38,694 bases of DNA from an uncultured Verrucomicrobiales bacterium. Its GTDB lineage: Bacteria > Verrucomicrobiota > Verrucomicrobiia > Verrucomicrobiales > DEV007. The position numbers and the translations under genes are program-made. Below are positions 1 through 20,683 of this stretch, in pieces (position 1 is the stretch's first letter; every line of letters starts with the position of its first letter). The notes below the pieces were generated by a model that saw only the letters and a program-made list of their open reading frames with translations, was not told where the DNA came from and made no database searches. The stretch spans positions 1-38,694 of the forward strand of contig CALAHF010000196.1 in NCBI GenBank assembly GCA_937891465.1, written 5' to 3'.

Positions 1-238
1 CCTCTCCCTTGCCAATCGAGAAATCAGCCCAGTTGATGATCGCTTTGTCAGTGCTCTGCAAAATCGACAGGTGACCATTCAAACCATCACCAATTTCAGC
101 GGCACCATTAATCACGACTCCACCGGAGGGATTACCGTAGCTTAACATTGGATAAAATAGCAGTCCGGGAGTCAACGATACCAGGGTCAGTATCTGAAAC
201 CAGAATGCCTTTCTTACGGAAAATAAGAGATTTTTCAT
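1..238 (-). CDS. TPS exoprotein (TpsA-like), N-terminal fragment cut by window edge
   Basis: The reading frame starts at ATG 236-238 and runs off the left edge. It encodes a hydrophobic signal segment (MKNLLFSVRKAFWFQ...) and then GNPSGGVVINGAAEIGDG, with STDKAIINWADFSIGKGE at the edge. This is the same mature N-terminus as the two full-length exoproteins further right (ANPSGG...DKAIINW.DFSI.KGE), which marks the start of the filamentous haemagglutinin N-terminal (TPS secretion) domain. It is therefore a third paralogue, expected to be exported by Sec and passed through the TpsB at 1309-3831. No Shine-Dalgarno sequence is visible upstream; the leader is pyrimidine-rich. It lies in the same orientation as the rest of the TPS locus, about 920 bp past the terminator of the TpsB gene. 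The family is secure, but its length and repeats cannot be seen. Confidence 0.85.
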   Translation of the reverse strand, partial: MKNLLFSVRKAFWFQILTLVSLTPGLLFYPMLSYGNPSGGVVINGAAEIGDGLNGHLSILQSTDKAIINWADFSIGKGE

Positions 239-1308: not shown

Positions 1309-3831
1309 TTAGAATGTTGCGCGCGCGCCGACGTGGAATCGGCCACTCTCACCATCCTCGAAGCCTTCTTCGACGATCTGAGCTCCATAATCAAGTCGAA
1401 CAGAAACATTGTCATCAAGCTGGTAGCGAATTCCCGCGCCGGCACTGCCCAAATTCAAATTCTCTTCGTTCGGAAGTTTGTCAGCACTGGAAAGAGCTCC
1501 ATAATCAAGGAATACAAGCGCCACTGCAGCATCACGAGCGTTGTAAAATCCCAACCAACGAGCGGGAGAAACCGGCGGCGTCCGCAATTCGAGAGTTCCG
1601 ATGAAGCCATTGTCGCCCCGGGCAATTCGTTGCTCAAATCCGCGAACTGAATCGTAGCCACCCGCACCCAACGTCTCACTTGCTAGCAAGTTTGTATTGG
1701 AAGTCTGAGCCTGAACCCGACCGATCAGCTGCCATTGTTTTGGCAGGCTCTGCTGACGCTCCGCCATGACTCTTGCGTAGGTGTAATCTGAGGTCGCTAA
1801 ACCACGCTGCTCTCCATAAATCTCATCCGTCCCTTTTCTGGTAATATCTCCGGGAGAGAGCACCACCTCTGAATCCAGCGACCATTGGCCTGAAGAATCA
1901 CGTGCCGTGGCGTTGTATCCGATAGAGAACTGGACGATCTCGGACGTTGAATCAAATACTTCAAGCGTATTAAAATCAAGAGCGCTGTTGCTGGATTTGA
2001 AATCCATCCCGACTTCAAATTCGTGCGTCCACTTTCCAAGTGACTTCATCGGAATGGCATAGCGCCCACTCAACTGCTTGTTGAGGCCGCCCGTAACGAG
2101 CTCCTGTCCATCAATATCGAACATTGCCTCAGACTCAACATAGGCCCCAAGCACAGTCAGTTGATGGCGCCAAGGCAAATACGAGGCAAACACGACGGAA
2201 TGACCAACCAAATCGGCCTCAGATTCAAAGTTGGTCGTAAACTGATAGCTTAGGAGGTTTTCCTCACTGAAGAATAGCGGCCCTGCCCAACTGCCACCCG
2301 CGGTAAAACGTTCCTGACCGAGAATCTCGTTTCCGGAATTATCAACACCAACATATCCAGAAAGCGCTTTAATCTGTTCCGCACGAAGGATGATATCCGT
2401 GGTTCCGTAGTCAGCACCGGGGCTGTAAACAAGATCCACCCGGCGAAACGAATGCTTATTCATCCAGTTCAAGTCGTCCAGTAAGGTGCTTCCCTTGATC
2501 ACTTCACCCCGGCTCAATCGAACCTGACTTGCAAGCAATTCAGCAGTCGTTCCTTCAACACCTTCGACCAAAACATCTCCGACACGGCCTTCAATAATTA
2601 CCAACTGAAGAACACCCGTAGTGACCTCTTGCTCCGGAACCAAAACGTCAATTACCGGCATGTCACTTTTGCGGTAGGCGACAACCACATCCCGAACGAG
2701 CATGTTCAAATTCTCCAGAGAGAGCGGAGTCCCCAAATAGGCGGCAAGTGCATCATTGGCTTTCTCAGGCAGGGTTACGCCATCCGCAACGATCCCGCTG
2801 ATGCCGCCCAAACCTGTTTTTGTAACGGCCCGTGTTCCGGAAACAACCCGAATTCCACGAAGACTCGATACCAGCGGGGTATCATCCACCGCTTCCGCAG
2901 CTGAAACATCCCCTTGAATGCCAGTGCCTCCTCCAAGTGGAGTCATTTCCAAATCCTGGTTCGCACCACCTGCTGAGAAAGGATTTTTCCATTCCCACTT
3001 TCCATCATTATCTCCTGGATACGCAGTTGGGTTGACTCCCCGATCCAACCAGCGTGTCTGCGCCCGGGTCGGAACCGATCCAGTGTAAACCAGCTGGTTA
3101 TCCTGAACGTAGCGTGATCCCTGATTAAATGCGCGGAGCTTATTTCCTGTCGGAGTTTCCGGATTGATCGGTGCCCCGTTGTAACCATACATGGCCTTTT
3201 GCCGGGAAACCTGAACCAATGCCGTTGAAGGGTCCAAAGGAACCTTCTTAATCATCATCTGATTCGCCGCTTTTTCCTTGGCCTCTTCCTGAGCAACAAT
3301 TGCTTCGTGTCGTGCTTCGCTTTTCGCGACTCGTGCCTCGCGGATCCGCTCTATCCGTGTCTTTTGCTGAGGCGTCCGGAAATCAGGAAGGGGTGGAAGT
3401 TCAATAATTCGTTCCTCTTGAACCAATTCTTCCTGCCAAAAATCGTCAACCCCGAAAGGCTTCAAACGTGATCCACTTGGAGTCACCGAATCCTCGGGTG
3501 CGACCAACTGACCGGGTGCCCCTCCCATTCGACGTGGAGCCTGCGCAGGAGGCTCACCCTGCTCGACTGATCCAACTCGTCGACTGACTTTATCTTTCCC
3601 TTTAGCGGCGCCACTCTTGCGCGCTTCCTGCCGAGCGATCAACTCACGCTTCTGAGCATCATCTGTCGCTTTGCGTTTTTTGCGAATGCGTTCCGCCATC
3701 CCTTCGTCCGAGCGCGAACTTCCGCTACCCAGATTAGGCACGGGCGGCAGTCCACCAAGAGGTGAATTTTGAGCTTGGATTGAGCTTAGGCTCATTCCAC
3801 AGAGGAGTAGGAAAGTCAGATAAAACTTCAT
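1309..3831 (-). CDS. TpsB-type outer-membrane transporter (ShlB/FhaC family) with long N-terminal extension
   Basis: This is the probable exporter of the large exoproteins encoded around it: a 16-stranded outer-membrane barrel with periplasmic POTRA domains. The 840-residue protein starts with a signal peptide (MKFYLTFLLLCGMSLSSIQA). An atypical low-complexity, highly charged stretch follows (about 35-200, rich in Arg/Lys/Glu/Ala and predicted helical), then an unassigned segment (200-320). POTRA-like domains are at about 321-415 and 416-488 (LRGIRVV...VIIEGRVGDVLVEG). The barrel covers about 490-840, with the conserved VRGF loop-6 motif at 729-732, FIGTLELRTP just after it, and a terminal Phe as expected for BAM substrates. 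FhaC-like proteins are usually about 550-600 residues, so roughly 300 residues are extra. No Shine-Dalgarno is obvious. TTAAC-AAGAG-GTTAA at 3851-3865 lies 20 nt upstream of the start and could be an operator. The gene has its own downstream terminator. Confidence 0.9.
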   Translation of the reverse strand: MKFYLTFLLLCGMSLSSIQAQNSPLGGLPPVPNLGSGSSRSDEGMAERIRKKRKATDDAQKRELIARQEARKSGAAKGKDKVSRRVGSVEQGEPPAQAPRRMGGAPGQLVAPEDSVTPSGSRLKPFGVDDFWQEELVQEERIIELPPLPDFRTPQQKTRIERIREARVAKSEARHEAIVAQEEAKEKAANQMMIKKVPLDPSTALVQVSRQKAMYGYNGAPINPETPTGNKLRAFNQGSRYVQDNQLVYTGSVPTRAQTRWLDRGVNPTAYPGDNDGKWEWKNPFSAGGANQDLEMTPLGGGTGIQGDVSAAEAVDDTPLVSSLRGIRVVSGTRAVTKTGLGGISGIVADGVTLPEKANDALAAYLGTPLSLENLNMLVRDVVVAYRKSDMPVIDVLVPEQEVTTGVLQLVIIEGRVGDVLVEGVEGTTAELLASQVRLSRGEVIKGSTLLDDLNWMNKHSFRRVDLVYSPGADYGTTDIILRAEQIKALSGYVGVDNSGNEILGQERFTAGGSWAGPLFFSEENLLSYQFTTNFESEADLVGHSVVFASYLPWRHQLTVLGAYVESEAMFDIDGQELVTGGLNKQLSGRYAIPMKSLGKWTHEFEVGMDFKSSNSALDFNTLEVFDSTSEIVQFSIGYNATARDSSGQWSLDSEVVLSPGDITRKGTDEIYGEQRGLATSDYTYARVMAERQQSLPKQWQLIGRVQAQTSNTNLLASETLGAGGYDSVRGFEQRIARGDNGFIGTLELRTPPVSPARWLGFYNARDAAVALVFLDYGALSSADKLPNEENLNLGSAGAGIRYQLDDNVSVRLDYGAQIVEEGFEDGESGRFHVGARATF

Positions 3832-4007: not shown

Positions 4008-7000
4008 TCAATTTCCAGAACCAGCAACACCCGCACCGAACACCCGGTGACTTGAGTATTTGTTGCCCTGAGGATCGAACACGTAATAAGTCAGTCCAAT
4101 GTTTCCAACAGGTCGGGAAGCCCGTTCACGTCTGCGGCGCTTTTCCTCGTCTTCCTCGCCTTCTTCGTCCCCGTCAGTACGAGAGCCGAAGATATTATCC
4201 AGAGCTCGCTCAGCATTTTTAAATCCATTTTCTTCTCCGCTTTCATCGCCTTCGAACAGTCCAAGCGCAGCCAAAAGTCCGCTTCCTTCGCCGGTAAGGC
4301 CGTCAAGCCCTTCATCGTCACGATCAAAAGAATCAAACTTGTCGGAAAACAAGAACTGGAGGAAATTGATTGGAATCACGACAGGCACAATCTCAGACTC
4401 AATCTCAGGAATAAATGGAGCAACCGGCAACGCCTTCGGAACTTTGGAAACGGGTCGGATGGCATCGTAGTAGATGGTATATAGACCAGCTCCACTCACA
4501 CCGTTACCGTCACGGTAATCAGGTGCACTGCTTCCCAACACCCCTGCATTGTTCGCCACAAGATTTGGAATCCCACCAGGATCACTGACTGCTGTAATTG
4601 AGCCTCCCTGAATTTCAGCCAAACTCGTTGGGAAAGGATTGCTCCCTGGAACGGTCGAAATCGCTCTATTGTCCCACCAGAGATCCGGCGTGAGATAGAT
4701 TTCATCTTCGCGACCGGCGTAAATCCCGCGAGAACGATCGAAAATCGCTCCTGTTGTGGCAACTGAATCAGCAAAGTTTGCCTCCGTCCCAACATAGGTA
4801 GCGGTTGCTTCATTGATTCGAGTGCCCATTCCCATCAGATTGTTATCACGCTCTGGAATGTAAAACTCAACGTTTCCGTTGCCCCCATACAATCCGCTGG
4901 AAAACACCGAGCCACCCAGGGTCTCAAGGGTTCCCGTTCCACCGTAGAACGGAAAGTTCCGTGCAACAGCAACCCGCGTCTCACCAAACAAAATCGAGAT
5001 TGCCTGAGCTTGGACTGCTTTGTCAGCATGTCCGACAAGAACCGGACGATTCGCAGCACCGAAGGTTCCATTCCCACCAATTGCAATATTGATGTCGCCT
5101 GAGCGAAGCCCCAAACCAGGTCCCTGAAAAGATCCAGCGGGTGAAAAACCATCCCGAAGCCAATCACCGTTTCCGATCATTGTGTAATTGTTAAGCTCCT
5201 GCCCGGGATTGGTTGGCTGCCCTCCCGTAGTGGAAAAGTTATTTCCTACGAGCAATGTGATATTTCCCGCCTTATCTCCGCTAACCCCGGGGCCACCATG
5301 TCCGATTTGGTTGATTGCACCCACGATTGGCTCATCGACACCATTTCCGGATACCGTTGAACTACCCGTCATTGTCAGATCGTTCGTAACAACAATCAGG
5401 ATATCACCTTCCATGTCAGACTCAGTCACTGGCCCCTGCCCAACTACACGACCAATCTCGTTGCTGTAGTGACCAATCTTGACGGTATTAAGCACGGATC
5501 CCAAAGCGTTTGAAAGGTCATCATCGGCCCGCACCTCAGTCCGCTGACTTCCGACCATCGTCAGGTCATTGCCAGTGAAGATTGAAATATTCCCGGTTGA
5601 AGGCGCATCCAAAAGTGTTCCGCCGTGACCAATCACCGCAGAGGCACCAATGACAAACTCTTCGACTGCAGTAATTGGAGCTTTGATATACGCATTCGGA
5701 CTTGCCTCCATGTAGAGGTCATTGCCCACATTGATTATAATATCACCCGTGAATCCCGTTGGGACGTTGTTCAGTCGAGAACGATCGTTTGCAGCATCAG
5801 ACGCAAAACCATGTCCGACTTGAGTATGAGACGCCCGATAACCGTTTCCTGCATACATCGTCATGTCATTGCCAACATCAATCGTGATGTCTGCAGTTGA
5901 ATCAATCCCATTCACGGTGCCTTCAACAACAACCACGTCGTAGGCGTCGAGGACCGCGCCATGACCAATCTGGATTGCATTTTGCTGAACTGGATCCGCA
6001 AATTCGGAAACTCCGACATTTTGATCATTAGGATCATTCTCTCCTCCGGCACGCCCGTCCATCATGAGGTTACCACCAACCGTAACATCAATCGTTCCGC
6101 TCAACTCCATGGCTTCATTTCCTCCAACACGATCTGCGTTGTCGGCTCCACCATGACCAATGCGGGTCCATTTTCCGTCATAAGCACCGTTTTCCATCAG
6201 GAGGTCGTCAACCGCTGTCACGATGATGTCGCCAACTTTGTCGTTGAAGGTGCCCGTCTGTCCCGTGGTCGATACCTGATCAACATTGCGACCCCCATGT
6301 CCAATCTGAACAAATCCATCAGTCGCATTGCTGCTCCCGCCGTCGCCGTCGTACACAACCTGGTTGTCTGTTTTCGAATCACCCGGCTCGAGATGAGTCA
6401 TTGTGATCGAGCTTCCTGAATCCACCGTAATATTCGCGGTGTTAACGCCGCCATTGGTATTATTGACGCCGATGCCCCCCTTGATAAAACGGTCTGTAAT
6501 CCCTGCAAAAGTAGGATTTGCATCCTGAGAACCGTCACCATTGGTGTCAATTAAGCCACTCGTGTCAGCAACTCCGGTATATTCCACATCCAAAACTCCA
6601 CCGGCATAGCTGATCGTGATATCAGTGCTGACGTTGTCAAAAGTGAAATTCTCTGTCCGGGAAAAATCACCACCAACCTGGCCATACGACTCAGTTCCGT
6701 CATGCCCGATTTTTGCATAGTTGTTCTGATAGGCGCCTCCAACCATCGTGATCCCATTCGCAGTAATCGTCGTTCCAAAAACAGTATCAAACACAGGCGC
6801 AGGCCCGGCAGCTCCCGCCACAACATTGATATCCCCACCGCGGTAAAGGAATCCATTCCGCCAACCGCCATGTCCAATCTGGGCAGGAGAGCGCATATCC
6901 TGATTGCTATCACCGGTGTAATCAACCAATCCACCTCCGATGACCGAAATATGCCCGGCCGCTACGACATTGATATCTCCGGCCATGACGCCTGATGTCT

Positions 7001-10000
7001 CCATATCAGCCAGCTGTCTTCCGTTGTGTCCAATGGAAGCGTGGTTGAACTGATTATTTCCGGCAATCACATTGACATCACCGGCGGTCGCCTGAACATC
7101 GATATCACCCGTGATATTCATAAAGGTCAGGGAACGGTCAAATCCGCCGCCAGACTCCAGGCCAATCGACATACTGGAAGTTTGCGTCGTTTCGTTAGCT
7201 CCCTGAATCCGCCATCCGACCAATTCACGATCACGATCGGTGCGGTTCGAAACATATCCGTTTTCTTCGGCCCACACCGCAAATCCGCGTCCACCGTGAC
7301 CGATCATTGCCCAGCGATCTTCCCGGGCGTTTCTCGCACCGTTTTCAACTGCCGGCAACGCACCAATCAACGCGGTATCGCGGGTATCTGCGGTTTCATA
7401 TCCTTTTACGGTCACTCCATTCAATCCCTTGCTGATCACCGTGATACTTCCGTGAAACCCTTTCATGGTGTGGCCATCGAGAGCCTCAACCGCTTGCGGC
7501 CCGGCATAGGAAAATTCGAGTTCACGACCACTTCCATCAGGTCGCGCAAGGTCACCGGTTACCAAGTCGACCACCGCTGATGTATGAGTGTCGAGGCGAG
7601 GGTCCATAATCGAGTGGACGGGAACAAATCGATCGGCACCATTTGAGTCTAGTATAGTACTGCCACCCACTCCGTTAAACAACGCTCCCCGTCTCAAATT
7701 CGGGTCGTTGAAATCACCACTGTTTGCAAAGAAGCGAATTTGCTGATCCTGATTATCATTTGGATTCCAAAAAGCGTAGCCATTGGCAATATGCCCAATG
7801 GCAGCCGCCCCCCGGGTGTTCGATCCTGCCAGAACCTTGACATCTCCCCCGGCTTCGACATAGATATCTCCGACAAACAAACCGGCCTGACCCGATCCAC
7901 CATGACCGATGAAAGCCGGAGCAAACTGTCCGTCATTTTGGTTATCATTACTGGGGTTATTTGAAGAACCCATGCGCTGATTACCCTGAATGGTCACGGC
8001 ACCCGCCGCGTTGTCGACAGTCGCCGTCAAATTCTGGGTCGCCGCATTTTGATGGTAAATAATCGCCTCGGAAGTGTTCACCCCGGCAAGCACATTGATA
8101 TTTCCATAAACCGGAGCCAAACGACTGATACTGGTTGCGACCCGATCATTGGTAGCTCCGTTGATTGACCACCGGCGAACGAAAGAACTTCCATTGTTAG
8201 TTTCGGTGCCGCCATTATTCAGCGAACGGTTGTCCGCCCACCCTGCGGCATCGCCACCATGGCCAATCTGGGCAGCGCCACTATGACGACCGCCTCCGAA
8301 GAGATTCACGGAAGCCGTTGTGATCACATTGATGTCAGCGCGATTAAATTCATCCCGCCCCGCACCGTGTTCCGGTCTCAAACCACCCAGTCCGAGAGCA
8401 TCATGATTATTAGCGATTCCATCCGCACTATTACCCGGATCGAGTTGCTGCCACCACCAGCCACCCGCACGCGCGCTGTTGAAATGGTTGGCATAGCGAA
8501 TCACCGAACCGGCGACAACTCCGGTGCTGTTGATTGCCTGAACGCCATCCGCAACTCCATCAGAATCCACATCCACTTCAAATTGACCGGCGATAGCCAC
8601 GACCGGGTCACCATCCCGGGTTGCAGCCATCACGAACCCTGCATTGTCAGCCCGAGGCGCAAACACCTGTCCCGCATCGCGAAAGCCGAGTTGAGTAAAG
8701 CGACTTTCACCGTTGGTGTCTGCAGCAATAATAAACAGGTTTTGCGCGGCAACATTGGTGTTCCCGAAACGACTTCCCACTTCAATGTTATTGTCCATTG
8801 AAGCACTTCCAATGAAAGTCGAACCGCCACTTCCGAACTGCCCGTTCTCTACGTAGTAATCCCAGACACGCTCCGGCCCAAACAAGCCAAGTGCGCCGTC
8901 ATCATCGAAGAAGCGAGCTCCACCTGGGTCATCGCCGGCATTCGGATTGTAATCAGCGTCAAACAAGCCACCGGTCTCGAAGTCTGACTCAAACCCGGTC
9001 CAACCGGAGATCAGGTTGATTGATCCCGCACCCGAAGTGCGGATGTGAGTGTTCACAAAAATATTACCTCCAGCCAGCGCACCGAAGTCCGCTGCTGAGT
9101 TGGTCCACTGAACCGCATTGTGCCAGTTACTGTTATTGAAATCTTGAGTTGCTGAATTAGGAAGCAAATCTTCGAAGGTAATGTCACCATCTTCAGTCAT
9201 GATCAGAACCGAGGTTCCCGCCTGAAGAATTGTATTGATATTCTGGATTGGAATATCGGATCCATTACCCCCTACGGAAACGTCACCCGGATCAAACAGA
9301 ACCGTTCCGGACCGTCCACCGATTGAAGTAGCAGCTACGGTCCCGCGAAAAGCCAATGTCTCCAATCCGGAAACCTCAATCAAACCGCCGTTGCCTTCAG
9401 GTCCCCGTGCTGAGGCCGTCACGTCACCGCGGAAAATCGTATCTCCATTCGACCAGATCACTGCCAGACCGCCATCACCGTTGAGGCCGTCTACATTGAT
9501 TTTGGTTCCAATCTCAAACGTAGTCGCGTTGGACTCACGCAAGTCGTTGGCGTCATCACCTCGAAGATCACCACCCACTTTTACAAAACCACCTTTGAGA
9601 TCACCCGTTGCCGAAAAACTGGATCCGAACCGGGCAACAACGTCTGCTCCCGTCGCAATGACGGAACCACCAACGCCTGTCGCGCCATTCGCGCTCAGTG
9701 AACCTGAAACAGAGGTAAGCCCTCCTGAATCCACGAGAATACTACCGCCATCTGAAAAACCACCGGCATCGATCGTCGAACTCCGGGCAACTGATACGCG
9801 GGCTCCGGTAACTGAAACGGCACCGCCAGCTCCCGTAGAACCGGTTGCTTGAAGGTTACCATTAATAACAACACTATCGGAAGAATTCACGTTCACCGCA
9901 CCACCAGTCGCACCATTTGCGCTGACCAGACCGTCCACAAGAACCGCCGTCGTATTCCCATTTCCGATATTCACAATACCGCCTTCGTTCTGTCCATTGG

Positions 10001-11024
10001 CAGAAACCACCGCAGTAGCGCCTACATTAATTTCACTTCCCAACACCGTAACCAGACCGCCATCAGTTCCGTCCGCACTCACGGTGCCGGAGTTGATATT
10101 CACGACACCCTGCTGGCCGCCATCGATCATGACTTCGCCGACGGTTCCATCCGCATTCTCCGCTGAGATGTCGCCGGTATTTGTAATGTCACCACCGACA
10201 TCACCCGCAGACAAAATCACCCGTCCATTGGTCCTCTGAGACCCTGTGGCCCGAATCGTTCCCGAATTGTTAATCGCAAGCGCGTAGACGTTCCCGTGAG
10301 CCTTCAGCTCAACCGCAGCGCCCTTAATTGAACCCGTATTGGTAATTCCAGTTCCACCGCCCACTCCGCCAGCCACAACCGAAATTTTCGAATCACCCGA
10401 GCTGTGAACGATGATGTCACCGCCAGCACCCAATGCAACCTGACCGTTCAATGCCCCGATTGAACCATGGTTCTCAACAAAATTACCAAGAATAATCACA
10501 TCACCCTCCGAAGATGAGATCGTTCCAAAGTTAGTCACCCCGGCAGCAGAACTGCCACGGAAGCGGTTATCTCCGCCATTAAGGAAATCGTTATCGTCGA
10601 TGTCCAACGTCGAAAGCGTCAAATTACCCGCAACATCAACCACACCACCGGCTCCAACCAAAATCCCGTTCGTGTTGATCAACATCACTCCGCCGTTCGC
10701 CTTCAGCGTTCCGAAAATCGCGGAAGGATTCCCGCTAACAACCCGGTTCAATACCGAAGAATTTTTTCCAGGCTGAACGAACTGAGTCAGCTCACCTTTC
10801 GCAATCGAGAAATCCTGCCAGTTGATAATCGCCTTATCACTCCCCTGCGTGATCACCAGATTTCCGGTATCAAGCCCTTCAAAACCGATCGCACCGTGTA
10901 CCACAACGCCGCCACTGGGGTTAGCCAGGGCAGTATCCTGCATCAGCATTAGCGCCGGCATCAACAGAGCCATGGTGGCTCGCTGGATCCAGACCGCTTT
11001 TCGAAATCGTTCGGTAATTTTCAT
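4008..11024 (-). CDS. Giant TPS exoprotein (TpsA) with IGHGG repeats, 2338 aa
   Basis: This is a probable secreted or surface beta-helix protein exported by the neighbouring TpsB. I chose ATG 11024 because GGAAAG lies about 8 nt upstream and a normal signal peptide follows (MKITERFRKA...DTALA, cleavage before NPSGG); a TTG at 11099 would add 25 residues ahead of it. The TPS/haemagglutinin N-terminal domain covers about 35-320, with NPSAIFG at 99-105 and NTNGI at 117-121 standing in for the classical NPNL and NPNGI motifs. Gly/Ala/Ser-rich beta-helix repeats follow (about 320-680). A long region (nt about 5020-8280) then has about 16 copies of [AVT]xIGHGG, each generally followed by GDI.V.AG-type strands. 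The C-terminal ~120 residues contain KFDSFDRDDEGLDGLTGEG, an acidic then basic tract, and YVFDPQGNKYSSHRVFGA, all shared with the other large exoprotein. The ligand and function are unknown. Confidence 0.88.
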   Translation of the reverse strand: MKITERFRKAVWIQRATMALLMPALMLMQDTALANPSGGVVVHGAIGFEGLDTGNLVITQGSDKAIINWQDFSIAKGELTQFVQPGKNSSVLNRVVSGNPSAIFGTLKANGGVMLINTNGILVGAGGVVDVAGNLTLSTLDIDDNDFLNGGDNRFRGSSAAGVTNFGTISSSEGDVIILGNFVENHGSIGALNGQVALGAGGDIIVHSSGDSKISVVAGGVGGGTGITNTGSIKGAAVELKAHGNVYALAINNSGTIRATGSQRTNGRVILSAGDVGGDITNTGDISAENADGTVGEVMIDGGQQGVVNINSGTVSADGTDGGLVTVLGSEINVGATAVVSANGQNEGGIVNIGNGNTTAVLVDGLVSANGATGGAVNVNSSDSVVINGNLQATGSTGAGGAVSVTGARVSVARSSTIDAGGFSDGGSILVDSGGLTSVSGSLSANGATGVGGSVIATGADVVARFGSSFSATGDLKGGFVKVGGDLRGDDANDLRESNATTFEIGTKINVDGLNGDGGLAVIWSNGDTIFRGDVTASARGPEGNGGLIEVSGLETLAFRGTVAATSIGGRSGTVLFDPGDVSVGGNGSDIPIQNINTILQAGTSVLIMTEDGDITFEDLLPNSATQDFNNSNWHNAVQWTNSAADFGALAGGNIFVNTHIRTSGAGSINLISGWTGFESDFETGGLFDADYNPNAGDDPGGARFFDDDGALGLFGPERVWDYYVENGQFGSGGSTFIGSASMDNNIEVGSRFGNTNVAAQNLFIIAADTNGESRFTQLGFRDAGQVFAPRADNAGFVMAATRDGDPVVAIAGQFEVDVDSDGVADGVQAINSTGVVAGSVIRYANHFNSARAGGWWWQQLDPGNSADGIANNHDALGLGGLRPEHGAGRDEFNRADINVITTASVNLFGGGRHSGAAQIGHGGDAAGWADNRSLNNGGTETNNGSSFVRRWSINGATNDRVATSISRLAPVYGNINVLAGVNTSEAIIYHQNAATQNLTATVDNAAGAVTIQGNQRMGSSNNPSNDNQNDGQFAPAFIGHGGSGQAGLFVGDIYVEAGGDVKVLAGSNTRGAAAIGHIANGYAFWNPNDNQDQQIRFFANSGDFNDPNLRRGALFNGVGGSTILDSNGADRFVPVHSIMDPRLDTHTSAVVDLVTGDLARPDGSGRELEFSYAGPQAVEALDGHTMKGFHGSITVISKGLNGVTVKGYETADTRDTALIGALPAVENGARNAREDRWAMIGHGGRGFAVWAEENGYVSNRTDRDRELVGWRIQGANETTQTSSMSIGLESGGGFDRSLTFMNITGDIDVQATAGDVNVIAGNNQFNHASIGHNGRQLADMETSGVMAGDINVVAAGHISVIGGGLVDYTGDSNQDMRSPAQIGHGGWRNGFLYRGGDINVVAGAAGPAPVFDTVFGTTITANGITMVGGAYQNNYAKIGHDGTESYGQVGGDFSRTENFTFDNVSTDITISYAGGVLDVEYTGVADTSGLIDTNGDGSQDANPTFAGITDRFIKGGIGVNNTNGGVNTANITVDSGSSITMTHLEPGDSKTDNQVVYDGDGGSSNATDGFVQIGHGGRNVDQVSTTGQTGTFNDKVGDIIVTAVDDLLMENGAYDGKWTRIGHGGADNADRVGGNEAMELSGTIDVTVGGNLMMDGRAGGENDPNDQNVGVSEFADPVQQNAIQIGHGAVLDAYDVVVVEGTVNGIDSTADITIDVGNDMTMYAGNGYRASHTQVGHGFASDAANDRSRLNNVPTGFTGDIIINVGNDLYMEASPNAYIKAPITAVEEFVIGASAVIGHGGTLLDAPSTGNISIFTGNDLTMVGSQRTEVRADDDLSNALGSVLNTVKIGHYSNEIGRVVGQGPVTESDMEGDILIVVTNDLTMTGSSTVSGNGVDEPIVGAINQIGHGGPGVSGDKAGNITLLVGNNFSTTGGQPTNPGQELNNYTMIGNGDWLRDGFSPAGSFQGPGLGLRSGDINIAIGGNGTFGAANRPVLVGHADKAVQAQAISILFGETRVAVARNFPFYGGTGTLETLGGSVFSSGLYGGNGNVEFYIPERDNNLMGMGTRINEATATYVGTEANFADSVATTGAIFDRSRGIYAGREDEIYLTPDLWWDNRAISTVPGSNPFPTSLAEIQGGSITAVSDPGGIPNLVANNAGVLGSSAPDYRDGNGVSGAGLYTIYYDAIRPVSKVPKALPVAPFIPEIESEIVPVVIPINFLQFLFSDKFDSFDRDDEGLDGLTGEGSGLLAALGLFEGDESGEENGFKNAERALDNIFGSRTDGDEEGEEDEEKRRRRERASRPVGNIGLTYYVFDPQGNKYSSHRVFGAGVAGSGN

Positions 11025-11060
11025 GGCTTTTCTTTCCAATTGGAGGGTTGGAGAAAGGAA

Positions 11061-11080
11061 GATTGCTGAAACCAGCAATC
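11061..11080 (-). promoter_or_regulatory. Perfect 8-bp hairpin in the leader of the exoprotein gene
   Basis: GATTGCTG-AAAC-CAGCAATC is a perfect stem with a 4-nt loop, 36 nt upstream of the ATG at 11024. On the minus strand the hairpin is followed by TTCCTTTCTCC, which is pyrimidine-rich but not a clean T tract. It could be a leader structure that affects stability or attenuation. No promoter was confidently placed. Confidence 0.4.
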
Positions 11081-11195
11081 GAACCTTCTTTTTTCGCAAT
11101 TATTCGTAGCGTTGTAAACCCAAAAGTAAGGATTTTCTAAACAGCGATATTCACTAAGGGTTGTCGTAAATTGAGGGGGCGTGACGTTTTTTCCC

Positions 11196-11233
11196 AAATA
11201 AAAAACCTCGGTTCTCTGTTCAAAACCGGGGTT
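11196..11233 (-). terminator. Intrinsic terminator after the 2402-aa exoprotein gene
   Basis: On the minus strand, AACCCCGGTT (11224-11233) pairs with AACCGAGGTT (11204-11213), a 10-bp stem with one G-U pair and a 10-nt loop. It is followed by TTTTATTTGGG. It lies about 120 nt past the stop at 11357, and the dispersed repeat 11249-11345 lies in between. Confidence 0.75.
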
Positions 11234-11248
11234 CTAAAAATTTCGTTT

Positions 11249-11345
11249 TAACAGGGTTCGCTCGTCAATTCAATAGGGTTGATTCGTAAATAAGAAATGA
11301 TCCAACAGGGTTCGTTCGATGATCGCACCCTGTTGGATCGAAATA
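11249..11345 (-). repeat. Dispersed repeat, locus B (3'-end array with 13-bp perfect inverted repeat)
   Basis: GATCCAACAGGGT (11299-11311) and ACCCTGTTGGATC (11327-11339) form a perfect 13-bp inverted repeat around a 15-nt spacer containing TCGTTCGA. Two further degenerate cores follow at about 11250-11260 (AACAGGGTTCG) and 11269-11280 (TTCAATAGGGTT). The array starts 11 nt past the stop codon of the exoprotein gene ending at 11357 and ends before its terminator, so it is transcribed in the 3' untranslated region. Confidence 0.75.
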
Positions 11346-11356
11346 GTTTAAAAGAA

Positions 11357-14300
11357 TTACCGGGCGCGCTGGATTCCACCACGGCTGGCACCGAAGACTT
11401 TGAAGCTTGAGTATTTGTTGGTGTCGGGATCGAACACGTAGAAGACCACATCAGATCCGCCGATCGGAAGTCCGAGGCGGGCTTCGCGACGCTCCTGCTC
11501 TTCCTCTTCTTCGCCTTCTGTATAATCCGCTTCTCCGTTACCGAGAGACTCGTCGAGAAGCTCTTCAAGGAAGAACGGTCCGTCACCTTCAGTCTCCTCT
11601 TCGTTCGCTTCGAACAGTCCGATCGCAGAGAACAATCCGCCACCTTCACCGGTGAGGCCATCAAGACCTTCATCATCACGATCAAAGGAGTCAAACTTGT
11701 CGAGAAAGAGGAACGGGAAGAAGTTGAAGAGCGTTGGGACCAACACCACTTCAGGAATTACCACTTCGACCGGGACACCCACTGCACGAGGAGGGGTCAC
11801 TGGAACTACCGTTGAATCGAAAAAGTAGATGTTATACAAACCAAATCCGTGGAAAGGATAAACTCCTTCTGCCGGAGTCGCGTAGTCACCGGTCGGCTCA
11901 CCGAAAGCTCCCACTCCCAGAGTATGCTCGGTTGCGATGTGCTCATCGGCACCACCACGAGTTCCCGGAGTTGGTGCCCGGGTGTAGCCCGCGTTATTCA
12001 ACCACGCGCCTTCCGCGATCCGATCCTGGGCCGGAGTCGGCATGTAGAAACGCAATTCAGTGAGGAATCCGCCGTCAGCACTGGAAACCACCGTTTGATT
12101 GGAGAGAGTGATCGTCCCGGATCCACCGGTTGGATTATTGCGGCTCGCCGCAATGTAGGTGTTGCCTGGAGTAGCGATCGCCGGATTGGTACTTCGCTTG
12201 GTATCCACGTGACCAATTTGGGCACCGTAGACATTTTCAGCTCCGTCGGCATCCACCCCGTTCAACGTGGTGATGTCTTCCCCAACACTGATAGTGATGT
12301 CTCCTTCAAGGCCACCGGAACCGTTATTGGCGTTGCCCTGGTTAATCGATGAACCATGACCAATCTTGGCATCGGCATCACGAACAACCACACCATTTGT
12401 GCTGGCAACTGAGCCGTGCTGCATCAACAGATTATTTCCTACCTCAATATCGATTAAGCCAGAGACTGCTCCGATCGCTTGGTTACCACCATGACCAATC
12501 TGAGCAAAAGAACGAAGACCTGACCGTCCCCCGGTGATCGTAAGATCAACCCCGGCGGAAACTCGGATATCACCCGTTGAATCGCCGTCCGAATAGGGAC
12601 CTCCGTGACCAATCTTCACAGACAGGTTACGCATGTTATCGTTGTCGATATTCAATGCATCGGTTCCTCCACCCGTAAGACTAACCGAACCTGCCGCCGC
12701 AACGACCGTGATGTCACCACTGTAACCACCGTTGCCCGCAGAGTTATTCTGATTTCCACCCTGCGCATCGGTATCAAATCCTCCATTGCCAATTTGAACA
12801 AAGGATTCGCGGGCGGTTTGGAGATTCCCGTCATTCGCCGGACCGGAAAATCCGTCATTCACGCCGTCATCAAGAACTGGCTTGGCACCAATCAGATCAA
12901 TATCGCCTGTCTCAGCAACGACTGAAATGTTTCCGGAAAGGGTTTCGCTGCGTCCCCATGTTCCACCACTTCCGATGATGCCATAGGCTCCACGATGACT
13001 GTTACCGGCTTCAATTTCAACACCCGTTCCGGTGGTGATGTCGATATCAGCATGGTGACTTCCACCATTGGAAAGTCCGCCTGAACCGATTTGAGCGTAT
13101 GAGCCACGAACGATGTCGTTATCAGTCGTAACCGTGACAATATTTGTAGCGGTATCGATCGACGCAACATCACCCGTGGTATCTCCATTCTGGAGTCCGC
13201 CACCTTTCATAGTGAGCTTGCCATCAATATCGATGCCAATGGTAGTGGTCGCGCCGGTGTCCCCATCACGCTGACCATCGTTATTAACCCGATCTGAATC
13301 ATAACCACCGTTTCCGATTTGCGCGAATGCCTGACGGCCTTCACCGGCAATGAGATCCAGATCGCCGCCGCCCGTAATGGTAATCGTTCCTGAATGATCT
13401 CCCCGGGCGGTATCGCCACCTAAGCCGATCATTGCGTAGTTCCGGGTTCCCTGAGACGGATCATCCTGACTGTCATCACCACCGATAAAGACGGTTACAG
13501 ACGGCCCTACAAAATAACTACCGGTTCCATCACCGTTGCTTACACCGCCCGGATTAGGAGTGACGTCATTGAAACTGGTTACGGTGATCTCCAGCGCCTG
13601 CCCCGTGGACACCGCTTGTTTGATGTCACTCGCTTCGACGCGGATATTTCCGCCGGCATCGATCGTGATATCGCCACGATGCCCGCGAGTGTCAACAATG
13701 CGCTCCGATTGCCCTCCGCCGTTGGCGAGTCCACCGGAACCCCGGTAATCCGTCGCGCGACCACCGTTTCCGATCTGAGCGTAAGAGTCTTCCGAGGACA
13801 ATACAGGATCAGGCAGGTTCCAAACTTCACCATCACTTCGAGTCACTGTCTCCAACCTTCCGTTGAACTGGCTAAACCCTGCTCCCGGAGTCACTGAATT
13901 CAGCGCCTCGTCGAGATAAGTATTCTGGACATCTGCAATAATTGGATTGCCCGCGCCGTTGTCTTCAATAATCCGAATCGGCATGACTTTATCAATCGTC
14001 GTCGCTTTTGGAGCAGCCAGAACGGTCAGATCACCCCCGAGAGTGATCGTGATATCGGACGTCTGGGCCGTTCCGATTCCATCCCCGTTTTTACCGGAGT
14101 TATTCCAGTTCTGCGTGGCGTTGGTATTGACGTGCTCAGAGTCGTGCCCGCCATGTCCGATCTGGGCAAAGTTCCGGTATCCGGTGCGACCATTGTCAGC
14201 CGTGTTGTTCAAAAACGGGTCCTGAGTAATATCTTCGTTGGTTCCGTCAATCGTCACCGCATCCCAACCACCGCGGGATTCCAGGTATAGATTGCCGGTT

Positions 14301-17300
14301 GCCGTGATATCAATCGTCCCGGAATGGTCTCCTTTTGTATACCGACCGCCGTGTCCGATCATGGTGAAGTTGTCACCGCCGTTCATTTCCATAAACGTTT
14401 GACCGGTCAACAAATAATCCTGACCTGCGATAAAGCTGATGTCGCCTCCGGAACTCACCGTAATATTGCCATTGTGACCTTCATCAATCGCAGTCACGGC
14501 ACCGTCGGTTCCAATGACGCCATCACCAACCTGTGCGGCATTGTAAACAATCGCCGGATTATAAATTGCATCAGCGGGCTGATAATAACCACCGTGACCG
14601 ATCATGGCGTGAGCCTGAACGTCGGTGAATCCAGCACGGAACCGAATATCGCCACCCGCAACTACATTGATATCACCCGAGTGAGTTCCGTTGGCGTGCT
14701 CGTTCCGCTGACGGCCACCTCTCCAGGTTGAACCATCTTCGCCACGTCCACCGTGACCAATCATCGCGTAAGCTTCACTGCGACCACCGTCGAATTGAAT
14801 ATCTCCCCCGGCATTCACATCTATATCACCCGTGGCGCCGCCCTGATAACGGGTACCACCATGTCCGATTTGGACGTGAGCTCGATGCCCGCGGTTCGTG
14901 ATGTCACGTCCCCGCTCATTTACCTGAAAGGCTTCGCGGGTAAATGTGACGTTTCCTCCGGCATTCACCGTAATATTCCCCCGGTGATCACCGTGAGTGG
15001 AACGGCCACCATGACCAAGCATCGCATAGGCATCGGCTCCGTTTGAGGCGACGAACTCGACACTGCCTACAGCTGTGACTGAAATATCGCCACTATGTCC
15101 GTAGGACTGCCCCGTCTCCGGATTGATCGCAATCCCATCTCCCACAAAACTGGAGTTGGTTACCGAGTTCGGACCAGCAACCAGAACTCCACCACCATCG
15201 GGATCTCCGGTATTTAAAGTTACGGTCCGGCGAGGACGAGCATCCAAATGAAACCCGGTTCCATCGGAAGCTGCCAGAGGAGTGTTTCCGCTGGTATCGT
15301 AAGCACCGCGTCCGCGAACATTAGCGAGAACAGCCTTCCCTGCAGCATCACCATAAGCACCGACCTCTCCCAGTGAATCAACAAAGATGAAATCAGAATC
15401 AAAACCGCCATGTCCAATCTGCGCGTGAGATTGATCGCGGTTATTCCGCCAACGCCAGTCGTTGGAGTTTGCAGGACCTCCTGAAGCTGAATTCGGCGCG
15501 GCCCGAGCCCGAACATCACCAACCGTAGCCTCGACCGTAATATTTCCAGAGTGCTCACCGCGAACCCGCGTTCCGCCATTGCCAATCATGACAGGCACGT
15601 CGTTCAAAAGCCCGCCCTCCAGCTCAATGCTCCCGGCGATCACGGTGATGTCACCGCTCATGTTTCCGAAGATATGAGTATTCCTGAAGTTGTTATCACC
15701 AAGACCGGAATCAGAAACGGTATTCGCACGATCCGCATCCGGATCGTCGTTGGCGTATCCACCATGACCGATCTGAGCATGCGACTCAGCACGCCCCGCC
15801 TGAAGATAAACCACCAGGCCGCCCATCACCACGATATCACCGCTGTTGTTTCCGTTGCCGACAGAAACGTTTCCGCTGTCTGAACCATAGTCAGTCAAAT
15901 CAAGAGAATCGTTGGTAACGGCACCCCGGTTATCGATATCATTATCCTGCTCGCGCATCCCACCATGACCGATCATCACATAAGCGCGGTCATTGGACTT
16001 TACGCCATCAGAGCTATTCTCGTTGGCATTCTGACGCAACAGCACTCCCGTGATTGCATGCACATTAATATCCCCCGTCACCCCGTTATGAAAATCAAGA
16101 TCCAATCCGGTCCTAATGGTTCCGCCGGCAATCCGAGCCCTGCCCCGCACGTCATTCTCACGACGATAGCCAAGCTGGGTAAACTCGCCTTGACCGTTAC
16201 CTGAGGTCACCCGGACCTGATCACCAAACGCATTGGTTTCACCACGGGCACTGCCAACCTCAACCGGTTCAAGCGCTGCGTCATTAAGTAGGACTGACCC
16301 CCCGTTTTGACCCCATGCACCGTAAGTGCCGGCAAGAACGTCCGCAGCAGTAATTACTGGATTGGTCGAACTCGGAATCCCGGTCGCGGCCGTTGGGTCA
16401 AACGCGAAATTCGCTGCCCCTGTTCCATCCCAACCCGCAACCAGAGTAATGTTTCCTGTGGTCGTCCCATTGGCAGCAACCGTCGTATTTTCACTCGTTC
16501 CATGGTTCTTAATATCCCCATTTACGCTGATGTTGCCATGGGCAAAGAATGCCAGAGAATTGGGGCTGTCATACTGAATATCAGATCCCGCATCAATGAC
16601 GATGTTACCAACATCACTTCCAGCAGATGAGGTGTGAATCACCACATTGTTCGTCAAGATGGCTTCAACCAAAGCCGAGTCTGAAATCGTTACTCCCGCT
16701 CCAGGCCCGATCGAAACATCCGTAGGATCAAGCAAAAGGGTTCCGTTCGCACCCGACACTGCGGATGCATTGACCCGACCGCGATACTGAAGCTGGTCTT
16801 TTCCGGAAACTTCCATGAAGCCACCGTTTCCAATCGCACCCAACGCACGGGCACTGATACTTCCAGAGAAGGTGGTATCACCATCTGACCAAACAATAAC
16901 GCGTCCAGCATTGCCACCTTCGGAATCAGCCACAAACTCCGCACCAGCCTCAATAACGGTAGACTTGGAATTCAACATATCGGATTCATTCCCCTGAAGT
17001 CCGCCACCTGCGCGAATTTGTCCCGCACTGGTAAATCCGGACACATCGGCGCTCGCATTTGCAGTCACCGCGACCGCCTCGCGAGAGACCACATCAAAAT
17101 TACCACCCTTACCGAGCAGGCTGTTCACTGCGGCAGTTCCTCCAAAAGTTGCATCCCCCACAAGCGAGCCAACCGTTACTGAACCGGCATCACCGGAAAC
17201 AGACGACGCATCCAACGTTCCGTTTGCCGTTACGCTTTGCAATCCATTCAAATTAATCACGCCGCCGGATCCGGATCCGCCCGCCGCATTGATCGTCGAG

Positions 17301-18565
17301 GTGCCGAACTGATTAACGGTTCCACCAATAACACTGACGGTGCCGCCATTAACGGATCCGTTTGCAAGGAGATCGCCACGAAGATTGATCACTCCATCAG
17401 CACGTCCATTCACATTGATCGTTCCACCGTCACCCGATGAACCCACCGTGCTAACGGTTGAGCCCGCACCGATGTTGACGGATCGCGTATTGCTCTCATT
17501 TCCAATGGTAATCACACCACCAGTTTCGCCGTCAGCACTGATCACTGCACCGCCATCGATGTTAAAATAAGCACCCTGAACATCAATCACTCCACCAGCG
17601 CGATTTCCGTCTCCGCTGGCATCCACTTCGCCACCTTCGAGATTCACCGTGCCGGTGCGTCCTGCATTGATATTGATTGTTCCACCGGAACCGTCCGCGT
17701 TTCGTGCCCGAAGCGTTCCTGTATTGGTGATCACTCCGCCGGTACCCGCATCCAACGTCAAAATTCCACCCGTGTAGTTCGCGCCGTTCGCTCGAATCAT
17801 TCCGCTGTTATTAATAGCGAGCGCATACACATTGCCGTGAGCCTTCAGTTCAACGGCCGCACCTTCGATGGTGCCTTCGTTGTTAGTTCCCACCTCACCA
17901 CCCCGGCCAGCTGCTTTAATCGAAATCTTAGCATCGCCCGACTGGTGAACAATGATGTCGCCACCTGCTCCCATCGCAACGGTTCCATCAACCGAACCAA
18001 TCACCCCGCGGTTATCAATGAAATTACCGAGCAAAACAACATCCCCACCTGCGCTGATGGTTCCGTAGTTCGTCACCCCTGCCGAACTGTTTCCACGGAA
18101 ACGATTATCACCACCATTCAAAAAATCATTGTCATCAATGTCGAGCGTTGAAAGCGTCAACGCCCCCGCAACGTCAACGACACCACCAGCTCCTACAAGA
18201 ATGCCGTTGGTATTGACAACCATCACTCCGCCATTGGCTTTCAGTGTTCCGAAAATCGCAGAAGGATTTCCGCTGACCACCCGGTTCAAAACCGATGAAT
18301 TTTTACCCGGCTGGATGAACTGAGTGAGTTCGCCTTTTCCAATTGAGAAATCCTGCCAATTAATGATCGCTTTATCAGTGCCCTGCGTGATCCGCAGATT
18401 TGCTGTATCAAGCCCTTCAAAAGTGACGCCACCGTGGACGACTGCACCTCCAGATGGATTCGCTTGTGTGATGCCCGGCATCATCGCAAACGCAGGAATG
18501 AGAAGGCTCAGCACGAATTGCTGGAACCTTTTTCGTGATCTGATTTTATTGATCATTGTATTCAT
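11357..18565 (-). CDS. Giant TPS exoprotein (TpsA) with IGHGG repeats, 2402 aa
   Basis: This is a paralogue of the 2338-aa exoprotein encoded next downstream and shares its whole design. It begins with a signal peptide (MNTMINKIRSRKRFQQ...GITQA, cleavage before NPSGG), then a TPS secretion domain with NPSAIFG and NTNGI, then Gly-rich beta-helix repeats. A long block (nt about 12200-15990) carries about 20 copies of IGHGG or close variants (IGNGG, IGSGG, LGHGG). These are typically followed 6-12 residues later by (S)GDI.V.AGGD strands, for example RGDHSGTI and RGEHSGNI. The C-terminus again has KFDSFDRDDEGLDGLTGEG, an acidic tract (EGEEEEEQERR) and YVFDPDTNKYSSFKVFGA. A second in-frame ATG at 18556 is an alternative start; neither has a clear Shine-Dalgarno. 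It is probably exported by the TpsB at 1309-3831. An adhesin or biofilm role is only a family-level guess. Confidence 0.88.
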   Translation of the reverse strand: MNTMINKIRSRKRFQQFVLSLLIPAFAMMPGITQANPSGGAVVHGGVTFEGLDTANLRITQGTDKAIINWQDFSIGKGELTQFIQPGKNSSVLNRVVSGNPSAIFGTLKANGGVMVVNTNGILVGAGGVVDVAGALTLSTLDIDDNDFLNGGDNRFRGNSSAGVTNYGTISAGGDVVLLGNFIDNRGVIGSVDGTVAMGAGGDIIVHQSGDAKISIKAAGRGGEVGTNNEGTIEGAAVELKAHGNVYALAINNSGMIRANGANYTGGILTLDAGTGGVITNTGTLRARNADGSGGTININAGRTGTVNLEGGEVDASGDGNRAGGVIDVQGAYFNIDGGAVISADGETGGVITIGNESNTRSVNIGAGSTVSTVGSSGDGGTINVNGRADGVINLRGDLLANGSVNGGTVSVIGGTVNQFGTSTINAAGGSGSGGVINLNGLQSVTANGTLDASSVSGDAGSVTVGSLVGDATFGGTAAVNSLLGKGGNFDVVSREAVAVTANASADVSGFTSAGQIRAGGGLQGNESDMLNSKSTVIEAGAEFVADSEGGNAGRVIVWSDGDTTFSGSISARALGAIGNGGFMEVSGKDQLQYRGRVNASAVSGANGTLLLDPTDVSIGPGAGVTISDSALVEAILTNNVVIHTSSAGSDVGNIVIDAGSDIQYDSPNSLAFFAHGNISVNGDIKNHGTSENTTVAANGTTTGNITLVAGWDGTGAANFAFDPTAATGIPSSTNPVITAADVLAGTYGAWGQNGGSVLLNDAALEPVEVGSARGETNAFGDQVRVTSGNGQGEFTQLGYRRENDVRGRARIAGGTIRTGLDLDFHNGVTGDINVHAITGVLLRQNANENSSDGVKSNDRAYVMIGHGGMREQDNDIDNRGAVTNDSLDLTDYGSDSGNVSVGNGNNSGDIVVMGGLVVYLQAGRAESHAQIGHGGYANDDPDADRANTVSDSGLGDNNFRNTHIFGNMSGDITVIAGSIELEGGLLNDVPVMIGNGGTRVRGEHSGNITVEATVGDVRARAAPNSASGGPANSNDWRWRNNRDQSHAQIGHGGFDSDFIFVDSLGEVGAYGDAAGKAVLANVRGRGAYDTSGNTPLAASDGTGFHLDARPRRTVTLNTGDPDGGGVLVAGPNSVTNSSFVGDGIAINPETGQSYGHSGDISVTAVGSVEFVASNGADAYAMLGHGGRSTHGDHRGNITVNAGGNVTFTREAFQVNERGRDITNRGHRAHVQIGHGGTRYQGGATGDIDVNAGGDIQFDGGRSEAYAMIGHGGRGEDGSTWRGGRQRNEHANGTHSGDINVVAGGDIRFRAGFTDVQAHAMIGHGGYYQPADAIYNPAIVYNAAQVGDGVIGTDGAVTAIDEGHNGNITVSSGGDISFIAGQDYLLTGQTFMEMNGGDNFTMIGHGGRYTKGDHSGTIDITATGNLYLESRGGWDAVTIDGTNEDITQDPFLNNTADNGRTGYRNFAQIGHGGHDSEHVNTNATQNWNNSGKNGDGIGTAQTSDITITLGGDLTVLAAPKATTIDKVMPIRIIEDNGAGNPIIADVQNTYLDEALNSVTPGAGFSQFNGRLETVTRSDGEVWNLPDPVLSSEDSYAQIGNGGRATDYRGSGGLANGGGQSERIVDTRGHRGDITIDAGGNIRVEASDIKQAVSTGQALEITVTSFNDVTPNPGGVSNGDGTGSYFVGPSVTVFIGGDDSQDDPSQGTRNYAMIGLGGDTARGDHSGTITITGGGDLDLIAGEGRQAFAQIGNGGYDSDRVNNDGQRDGDTGATTTIGIDIDGKLTMKGGGLQNGDTTGDVASIDTATNIVTVTTDNDIVRGSYAQIGSGGLSNGGSHHADIDITTGTGVEIEAGNSHRGAYGIIGSGGTWGRSETLSGNISVVAETGDIDLIGAKPVLDDGVNDGFSGPANDGNLQTARESFVQIGNGGFDTDAQGGNQNNSAGNGGYSGDITVVAAAGSVSLTGGGTDALNIDNDNMRNLSVKIGHGGPYSDGDSTGDIRVSAGVDLTITGGRSGLRSFAQIGHGGNQAIGAVSGLIDIEVGNNLLMQHGSVASTNGVVVRDADAKIGHGSSINQGNANNGSGGLEGDITISVGEDITTLNGVDADGAENVYGAQIGHVDTKRSTNPAIATPGNTYIAASRNNPTGGSGTITLSNQTVVSSADGGFLTELRFYMPTPAQDRIAEGAWLNNAGYTRAPTPGTRGGADEHIATEHTLGVGAFGEPTGDYATPAEGVYPFHGFGLYNIYFFDSTVVPVTPPRAVGVPVEVVIPEVVLVPTLFNFFPFLFLDKFDSFDRDDEGLDGLTGEGGGLFSAIGLFEANEEETEGDGPFFLEELLDESLGNGEADYTEGEEEEEQERREARLGLPIGGSDVVFYVFDPDTNKYSSFKVFGASRGGIQRAR

Positions 18566-20637: not shown

Positions 20638-20683
20638 CTCCTCACCGTTGCCGCAGATATCGTCGCAATCTAGAATTTTCTGC

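What the first reader, a model, noticed from the sequence alone, without database searches (positions are those of the whole stretch)
4008..18565. Two giant TPS exoproteins built on an IGHGG-type repeat
Both exoproteins carry many copies of [AVT]xIGHGG or close variants (about 16 and about 20 by eye), spaced irregularly at roughly 45-110 residues. Each is commonly followed by a loop and then (S)GDI.V.AGGD strands. The motif block covers about nt 5020-8280 and 12200-15990. I know of no named TPS repeat with this signature. A conserved His-Gly-Gly at fixed helix turns could be a metal site or a turn-stacking element.
Basis: partly seen in the sequence, partly recalled or inferred. Interest (0 to 1): 0.68.

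Follow-up and report, generated by a model that had tools for sequence, protein, structure and literature searches.

The report
His-ladder beta-helix repeat in giant exoproteins
Two very large proteins that this uncultured verrucomicrobial bacterium probably pushes onto its surface are built from a roughly 37-residue repeat ending in Ile-Gly-His-Gly-Gly; no curated family tested covers it, each copy most likely forms one turn of a long rod, and the histidines probably stack on each other to hold the rod together rather than bind metal.

Summary
The repeat is real. A profile built only from other genomes finds 19 units in one exoprotein (E 1e-113) and 14 in the other (E 2e-37), none in reversed or shuffled copies. 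No Pfam or NCBIfam model covers it. The unit is YAQIGHGG-xxxxGxxS-GDITVxA-GGDIxFxGG, 36-38 residues plus loop insertions. It is widespread in the window's own family, with open frames to 8,899 aa, and sporadic in Proteobacteria, Chloroflexota and Ca. Theseobacter. A regular 7-unit stretch of a relative is predicted as a beta-helix with three strands per unit (pLDDT 95, pTM 0.93); best structural match: the TPS adhesin EtpA (Z 13.8). Among 3,123 units the His position is H 76%, N 13%, D/E 0.4%, C none. H/N correlates with the next unit (phi 0.36) but hardly with the one after (0.08), although unit similarity does not depend on distance; core columns couple likewise. Best reading: one unit is one coil of a surface rod with a His/Asn corner-stacking ladder. 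'Turn-stacking' is supported, 'metal site' disfavoured. Fold and secretion system are known kinds; the repeat family appears undescribed.

The parts
11357..18565 (-). Exoprotein 1 (TpsA-like, 2402 aa, P0002): signal peptide, TPS domain, IGHGG rod, C-cap, C-terminal tail
   Evidence: ORF; TIGR01901 at residues 68-142, E 2.9e-17
18140..18364 (-). TPS secretion-domain core of exoprotein 1
   Evidence: TIGR01901 residues 68-142; Pfam PF05860 not reported for this protein
16166..16423 (-). N-cap element of the IGHGG module in exoprotein 1 (VEVGSARGETN...FTQLGY)
   Evidence: Same element precedes the repeats in many proteins of other genomes; boundaries approximate
12263..15988 (-). IGHGG repeat array of exoprotein 1, residues 860-2101
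   Evidence: 19 units above 8 bits with a leave-window-out profile, E 1.1e-113
11984..12262 (-). C-cap of the IGHGG module in exoprotein 1 (YGAQIGHVD...ELRFYMP)
   Evidence: Conserved in 26 proteins; part of the model of nt 11984-13447
11381..11464 (-). C-terminal tail motif YxFDPxxNxYSSxRVFG, exoprotein 1
   Evidence: Profile hit E 6.6e-16; only two such hits in the whole genome
4008..11099 (-). Exoprotein 2 (TpsA-like, 2363 aa, P0001; ATG near 11024 more likely than TTG at 11099)
   Evidence: ORF; Pfam PF05860 E 1e-23 and TIGR01901
10164..10865 (-). TPS secretion domain of exoprotein 2
   Evidence: PF05860 residues 79-312
8685..8942 (-). N-cap element of the module in exoprotein 2 (IEVGSRFGNTN...FTQLGF)
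   Evidence: boundaries approximate
5070..8273 (-). IGHGG repeat array of exoprotein 2, residues 943-2010, more degenerate
   Evidence: 14 units above 8 bits, E 2.1e-37
4800..5069 (-). Degenerate C-cap of exoprotein 2 (VGHADK...VEFYIPERDNN)
   Evidence: By eye against the C-cap, sequence; inference
4026..4109 (-). C-terminal tail motif, exoprotein 2
   Evidence: Profile hit E 3.2e-17
1309..3831 (-). TpsB outer-membrane transporter (840 aa) with POTRA_2 and ShlB barrel and about 340 extra N-terminal residues
   Evidence: PF08479, PF03865; tpsA-tpsA-tpsB order kept in other genomes
1..238 (-). Start of a third TpsA-like exoprotein, cut by the contig end
   Evidence: MKNLL...GNPSGGVV...IINWADFSIGKGE; a further tpsA also follows tpsB in the same-genus locus L065

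Best explanation
Both genes encode TPS-secreted surface proteins whose central part is a right-handed parallel beta-helix rod. Each 36-38-residue IGHGG unit makes one three-stranded coil: strand YAQI, corner G-H-G-G with a variable loop, strand GDITV, tight GG turn, strand DIxF. The His at the corner (Asn as second choice) faces the inside edge and stacks on the equivalent residue of the next coil, a side-chain ladder like the asparagine ladders of alginate lyases but mostly His. The GG pair makes the tight corner from which loops of any length can leave. Dedicated N- and C-caps close the rod. The TpsB encoded next door exports both proteins, which fold outside the cell and act as stalk-like adhesins or surface fibres. 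Shown from sequence: the repeat, the TPS domain, the tpsB neighbour, the caps, and the lag-1 coupling. Shown by prediction only: the beta-helix. Inferred: inward orientation of His, hydrogen bonding, adhesion.
For: TPS domain and TpsB; tpsA-tpsA-tpsB order conserved in L057, L113 and L128, tpsA-tpsB-tpsA in L065. A regular 7-unit array is predicted at pLDDT 95.1, pTM 0.93 with three strands recurring every 37 residues and the His just after the first strand; the window segment 11984-13447 gives three strands per unit at lower confidence (pLDDT 72, pTM 0.82). Structural neighbours are beta-helix adhesins: EtpA Z 13.8 over 167 residues at 2.6 A; Vag8 Z 17.2 and pertactin Z 14.6 for the window model. 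Residue coupling between successive units is strong in hydrophobic columns 7, 22, 24, 30, 32 (z 8-26) and in the His column 9 (z 10.6), weak or absent in most alternate columns. H/N correlation is 0.36 at lag 1, 0.08 at lag 2 and between 0 and 0.08 beyond, while unit identity is flat at 0.19-0.21, so tandem duplication does not explain it. Asn-Asn neighbours: 125 observed, 64 expected, permutation maximum 84 of 1000. His-to-Asn is the substitution expected for a hydrogen-bonded ladder; known Asn ladders lie at beta-helix corners (PMC6879350).
Against: No coordinates were returned by the structure tool, so His side-chain orientation was not measured. The high-confidence model is of a gammaproteobacterial relative (L081); the window's own segment is less certain in its loops. 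Foldseek gave no PDB match at E <= 0.001, so the fold assignment rests on the strand pattern and the re-alignment. In the window itself the arrays are interrupted: the longest run of closely spaced IGHGG units is 4 (P0002) and 2 (P0001), so a continuous ladder there needs the degenerate coils in between. Column 4 (Tyr/Phe), of the opposite parity, is also coupled (z 7.7), so coupling alone does not prove an inward position. Adhesion has no direct evidence.
Confidence: 0.77

Rival explanations
1. The His-Gly-Gly array is a functional metal-binding surface: regularly spaced His residues collect Zn, Cu, Ni or Fe at the cell surface or cross-link rods.
For: His is at a fixed position and up to 28 closely spaced motif-positive units follow one another; a second His is common at column 18 (about 36% of tight units).
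Against: Substitution is to Asn (13%), then Ala/Leu/Ser; Asp+Glu 13 of 3,123 and Cys none. H9 and H18 do not co-occur. The His column couples across coils like the core columns, which suggests an inner-edge position.
Confidence: 0.08
2. The corner loop (YDxDGDHSGD) is a calcium site and the His is incidental; calcium drives folding outside the cell as in RTX proteins.
For: D/N are frequent at columns 13, 15, 17, 21, and D13 with D15 co-occur (phi 0.25).
Against: The other Asp pairs are independent (phi about 0) and the four-position combination is present in 3.5% of units against 2.6% expected; no RTX or calcium-repeat family matches.
Confidence: 0.1
3. The proteins are interbacterial toxins of the CdiA type, with the IGHGG region as the delivery stick.
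For: CdiA proteins are also TPS-secreted giant rods (established knowledge; PMC5371414 listed); the exoproteins lie beside a TpsB gene.
Against: No toxin domain is recognised in either protein; the C-terminal tail motif is shared by both exoproteins and by orthologues, unlike a variable toxin; only about 250 bp separate the two tpsA genes, so no usual immunity gene.
Confidence: 0.07
4. The like-with-like coupling of the His position reflects local duplication of units rather than physical stacking.
For: Repeats do spread by duplication, and columns 7 and 32 keep some correlation to lag 3 or beyond.
Against: Unit identity is independent of lag (0.205 at lag 1, 0.199 at lag 10), while the H/N correlation falls from 0.36 to 0.08 in one step.
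Confidence: 0.06

Closest known systems
TpsA exoproteins with beta-helix rods (FHA of Bordetella, EtpA of E. coli, HxuA of Haemophilus)
   Same: N-terminal TPS domain, partner TpsB with POTRA domain encoded next door, repetitive beta-helix body; EtpA is the best structural match of the regular model (Z 13.8)
   Different: FHA units are about 19 residues (PMC3756990) and EtpA modules 228 residues (PMC11463764); IGHGG units are 36-38 residues with a conserved His-Gly-Gly corner and own caps, and match no Pfam repeat model
Asparagine ladder of alginate-acting parallel beta-helix enzymes (BcelPL6, family PL6)
   Same: A polar residue at one corner of each coil, stacked coil on coil; Asn is the second commonest residue here
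   Different: Here the ladder residue is mainly His; up to 28 closely spaced motif-positive units follow one another against a 10-step ladder called the longest reported in 2019 (PMC6879350); no lyase domain matched
Autotransporter passengers Vag8 and pertactin
   Same: Right-handed parallel beta-helix (Z 17.2 and 14.6 with the window model)
   Different: Secreted by their own barrel; here a separate TpsB; no credible sequence match in the PDB
Giant genes of the PVC group (Omnitrophota and others)
   Same: Very long open frames coding for probable surface proteins
   Different: Those are described with transmembrane helices and carbohydrate-degradation domains (PMC12057145); here the length comes from one mainly TPS-borne repeat

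Membership tests
Two-partner secretion exoprotein (TpsA) | N-terminal TPS / filamentous haemagglutinin secretion domain | tested here: met
   PF05860 E 1e-23 in P0001; TIGR01901 E 9e-18 and 3e-17 in P0001 and P0002
Two-partner secretion exoprotein (TpsA) | Cognate TpsB transporter with POTRA domain and ShlB-type barrel nearby | tested here: met
   P0003: PF08479 and PF03865; order conserved
Two-partner secretion exoprotein (TpsA) | Repetitive beta-helix body | tested here: met
   By prediction only: models, matches
Two-partner secretion exoprotein (TpsA) | Secretion depends on the cognate TpsB | not testable with these tools
   Needs a deletion experiment
Any named Pfam or NCBIfam repeat | Profile match over the IGHGG array | tested here: not met
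   No match on the arrays at E <= 1 nor in three relatives at E <= 0.1 except a sub-threshold PRC hit; InterPro's other member databases not available
FHA-type haemagglutinin repeat | Unit of about 19 residues per coil matching the haemagglutinin repeat models | tested here: not met
   Period 36-38; no such Pfam match
Corner side-chain ladder (asparagine-ladder type) | Same polar residue at one corner of successive coils | tested here: met
   H/N at one position, lag-1 coupling, position just after a strand in the model
Corner side-chain ladder (asparagine-ladder type) | Inward-facing side chains hydrogen-bonded coil to coil | not testable with these tools
   No coordinates returned; inward direction inferred from alternation with core columns
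His metal-binding array | Ligand-type residues conserved; substitutions to other ligands (D, E, C) | tested here: not met
   D+E 13 of 3,123, C none, N 397
RTX / calcium-driven repeat | Co-conserved acidic positions in each turn, or RTX model match | tested here: not met
   Asp positions mostly independent; no model match
CdiA contact-dependent toxin | Variable C-terminal toxin domain and immunity gene | tested here: not met
   No toxin match; conserved C-terminal tail; about 250-bp gap between the tpsA genes

The most novel reading that the evidence does not exclude
The rods carry a continuous internal column of stacked imidazoles, tens of coils long, whose protonation or metal loading switches rod stiffness or lets charge move along it, so that the giant proteins work as pH- or redox-responsive surface springs or wires.
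Probability: 0.05. Interest if true: 0.85.

Novelty: new variant of a known kind. Interest (0 to 1): 0.52.

Why it matters
A repeat family without a Pfam or NCBIfam model accounts for most of the length of giant genes (open frames to 8,899 aa) in one verrucomicrobial family and recurs in several other bacterial groups, once without a TPS domain. A model for it would annotate these genes. The coil-to-coil coupling is sequence-only evidence for a side-chain ladder in a beta-helix, mainly of histidine, and possibly much longer than the asparagine ladders described. It is directly testable with a short fragment and could serve as a design element for protein rods.

Tried and rejected
Metal site: substitution spectrum and lack of H9-H18 coupling speak against it. 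Calcium loop: Asp positions nearly independent. Known repeat: no match in Pfam or NCBIfam. PDB relatives by profile: none credible, best E 1. Foldseek against PDB and viral models: no match at E <= 0.001. Viral carriage: no confirmed relative in IMG/VR. Plasmids: the listed matches end by about query residue 690, so they cover the N-terminal part and not the repeat. Literature: 'IGHGG' occurs in three unrelated papers only. Two collection scans failed because the alignment was too diverse and were repeated with a closer set. One alignment for the model had a start-codon artefact and a poorly aligned row and was redone. A script stopped on an empty last column after printing all results used here.

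Full report
1. Observation. Two large minus-strand frames, P0002 (11357-18565) and P0001 (4008-11099), start with signal-peptide-like segments and TPS secretion domains, and the gene after them encodes a TpsB transporter with POTRA_2 and ShlB barrel. Exact IGHGG occurs 10 and 8 times, against about 0.01-0.02 per shuffle. A profile trained only on other genomes finds 19 and 14 units, E 1e-113 and 2e-37; reversed and shuffled sequences give none. The window spans agree with the finding.

2. The unit. From 1,309 units the consensus is (A/S)(Y/F)AQ(I/L)GHGGxxxxGxxSG(D/N)I(T/S)VxAGGDIx(F/L)xGG, with the three motif glycines at 100, 97 and 96% and His 78% / Asn 14%. Gaps between motifs peak at 37-38 residues with a long tail from loop insertions. 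Pfam and NCBIfam do not cover it.

3. A module with ends. In many proteins the array starts with a recurring element (VxVGSRxGxTN...YAQLGF), and in 26 it ends with another (AxIGHG...GxxIGHVD...ELRFYxP). Some polypeptides hold several start elements. The Caldilineaceae protein L114 has a signal-peptide-like start, start element, repeats and end element but no TPS domain; a DUF7507/DUF11-type region follows. The module is therefore separable from TPS secretion.

4. Distribution. In the window's order 43 of 289 sampled genomes match, 40 of them in the window's own family, with open frames to 8,899 aa; in a sample of 387 genomes of its phylum, beyond the own genome, only two marginal hits. Elsewhere it is rare: 1 of 251 genomes of the phylum of L114, 3 of 289 of the class of Roseibium L094, 1 of 274 of the class of L081, the query genomes being among these. 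The genome-contig scan, capped at the best 80 of 190, gave mostly Verrucomicrobiales plus Gamma- and Alphaproteobacteria, Chloroflexota and Ca. Theseobacter. Most are metagenome assemblies, so single cases could be misbinned; L114 lies on a 1.16-Mb contig.

5. Gene order. tpsA-tpsA-tpsB is kept in L057, L113 and L128; in the same-genus locus L065 a further tpsA follows tpsB, just as the window's left edge (1-238, minus) holds the start of a third TpsA. The gammaproteobacterial L081 and the Roseibium L094 also have TpsB next to the IGHGG protein.

6. Fold. The window segment 11984-13447 (9 units and C-cap, 12-row alignment) models at pLDDT 72, pTM 0.82 with three strands per unit. A regular 7-unit stretch of L081 (period exactly 37) models at pLDDT 95.1, pTM 0.93: strands YTQL, IAI and VINFS recur about every 37 residues and the His follows the first strand. 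Structural re-alignment gives Vag8 Z 17.2 and pertactin 14.6 (window model), and EtpA Z 13.8, tapirins 12-13, HxuA 10.6 (regular model). Foldseek alone was not significant.

7. Role of the His. If one unit is one coil, side chains of equivalent positions touch in adjacent coils. In 89 non-redundant proteins (3,590 units) residues at hydrophobic columns 7, 22, 24, 30, 32 resemble the next unit more than expected (z 8-26), most alternate columns do so weakly or not at all, and column 9 (His) does (z 10.6); column 4 (Tyr/Phe) is also coupled (z 7.7). The H/N correlation drops from 0.36 at lag 1 to 0.08 at lag 2, while unit identity is the same at all lags. Asn-Asn neighbours are twice the permutation mean. 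Replacement is mainly by Asn, almost never by Asp or Glu and never by Cys. This is the behaviour of a side-chain ladder at a coil corner. The known precedent is the asparagine ladder of alginate-acting beta-helix enzymes, where a 10-step ladder was called the longest reported in 2019 (PMC6879350). Here up to 28 closely spaced motif-positive units follow one another. In the window the runs are shorter (4 and 2), and the ladder there would pass through degenerate coils.

8. What is shown and what is not. Shown: repeat, absence from the two curated libraries, caps, gene order, coupling statistics. Predicted: beta-helix, one unit per coil. Inferred: inward His, hydrogen bonding, surface rod and adhesion. 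The statistic treats units within a protein as exchangeable and pools related proteins; the sharp lag dependence is the main safeguard.

9. Verdict. A real, apparently unnamed repeat family; the secretion class and fold are known kinds. The turn-stacking reading is favoured, the metal reading is not.

Noticed in passing
1-238, minus strand: Start of a third TpsA-like exoprotein cut by the contig end; other TPS fragments of this genome (C7, C185) also end at contig edges, suggesting assembly breaks in similar tpsA starts.
   Followed up: partly
4026-4109 and 11381-11464, minus strand: C-terminal tail motif YxFDPxxNxYSSxRVFG shared by both exoproteins and by orthologues in related genomes, found nowhere else in this genome; a possible anchoring or sorting signal.
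   Followed up: partly
1309-3831, minus strand: TpsB has about 340 residues before its POTRA domain, rich in charged residues and proline near the start.
   Followed up: no
L114 9347-13024: Caldilineaceae protein with the complete IGHGG module but no TPS domain, followed by DUF7507/DUF11-type and DxDxDG-rich sequence; the module has moved to another export route.
   Followed up: partly
18773-20853, minus strand: O-succinylbenzoate synthase and UbiA-type prenyltransferase genes, as in menaquinone synthesis, lie just upstream of the exoprotein genes.
   Followed up: no
20739-22862, plus strand: A 707-aa frame joining a GDSL/SGNH hydrolase region and an amidohydrolase region, an unusual pairing.
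   Followed up: no
L113 genome (G439): An open frame of 8,899 aa with many IGHGG units on contig C32 of the NAT23 assembly.
   Followed up: no
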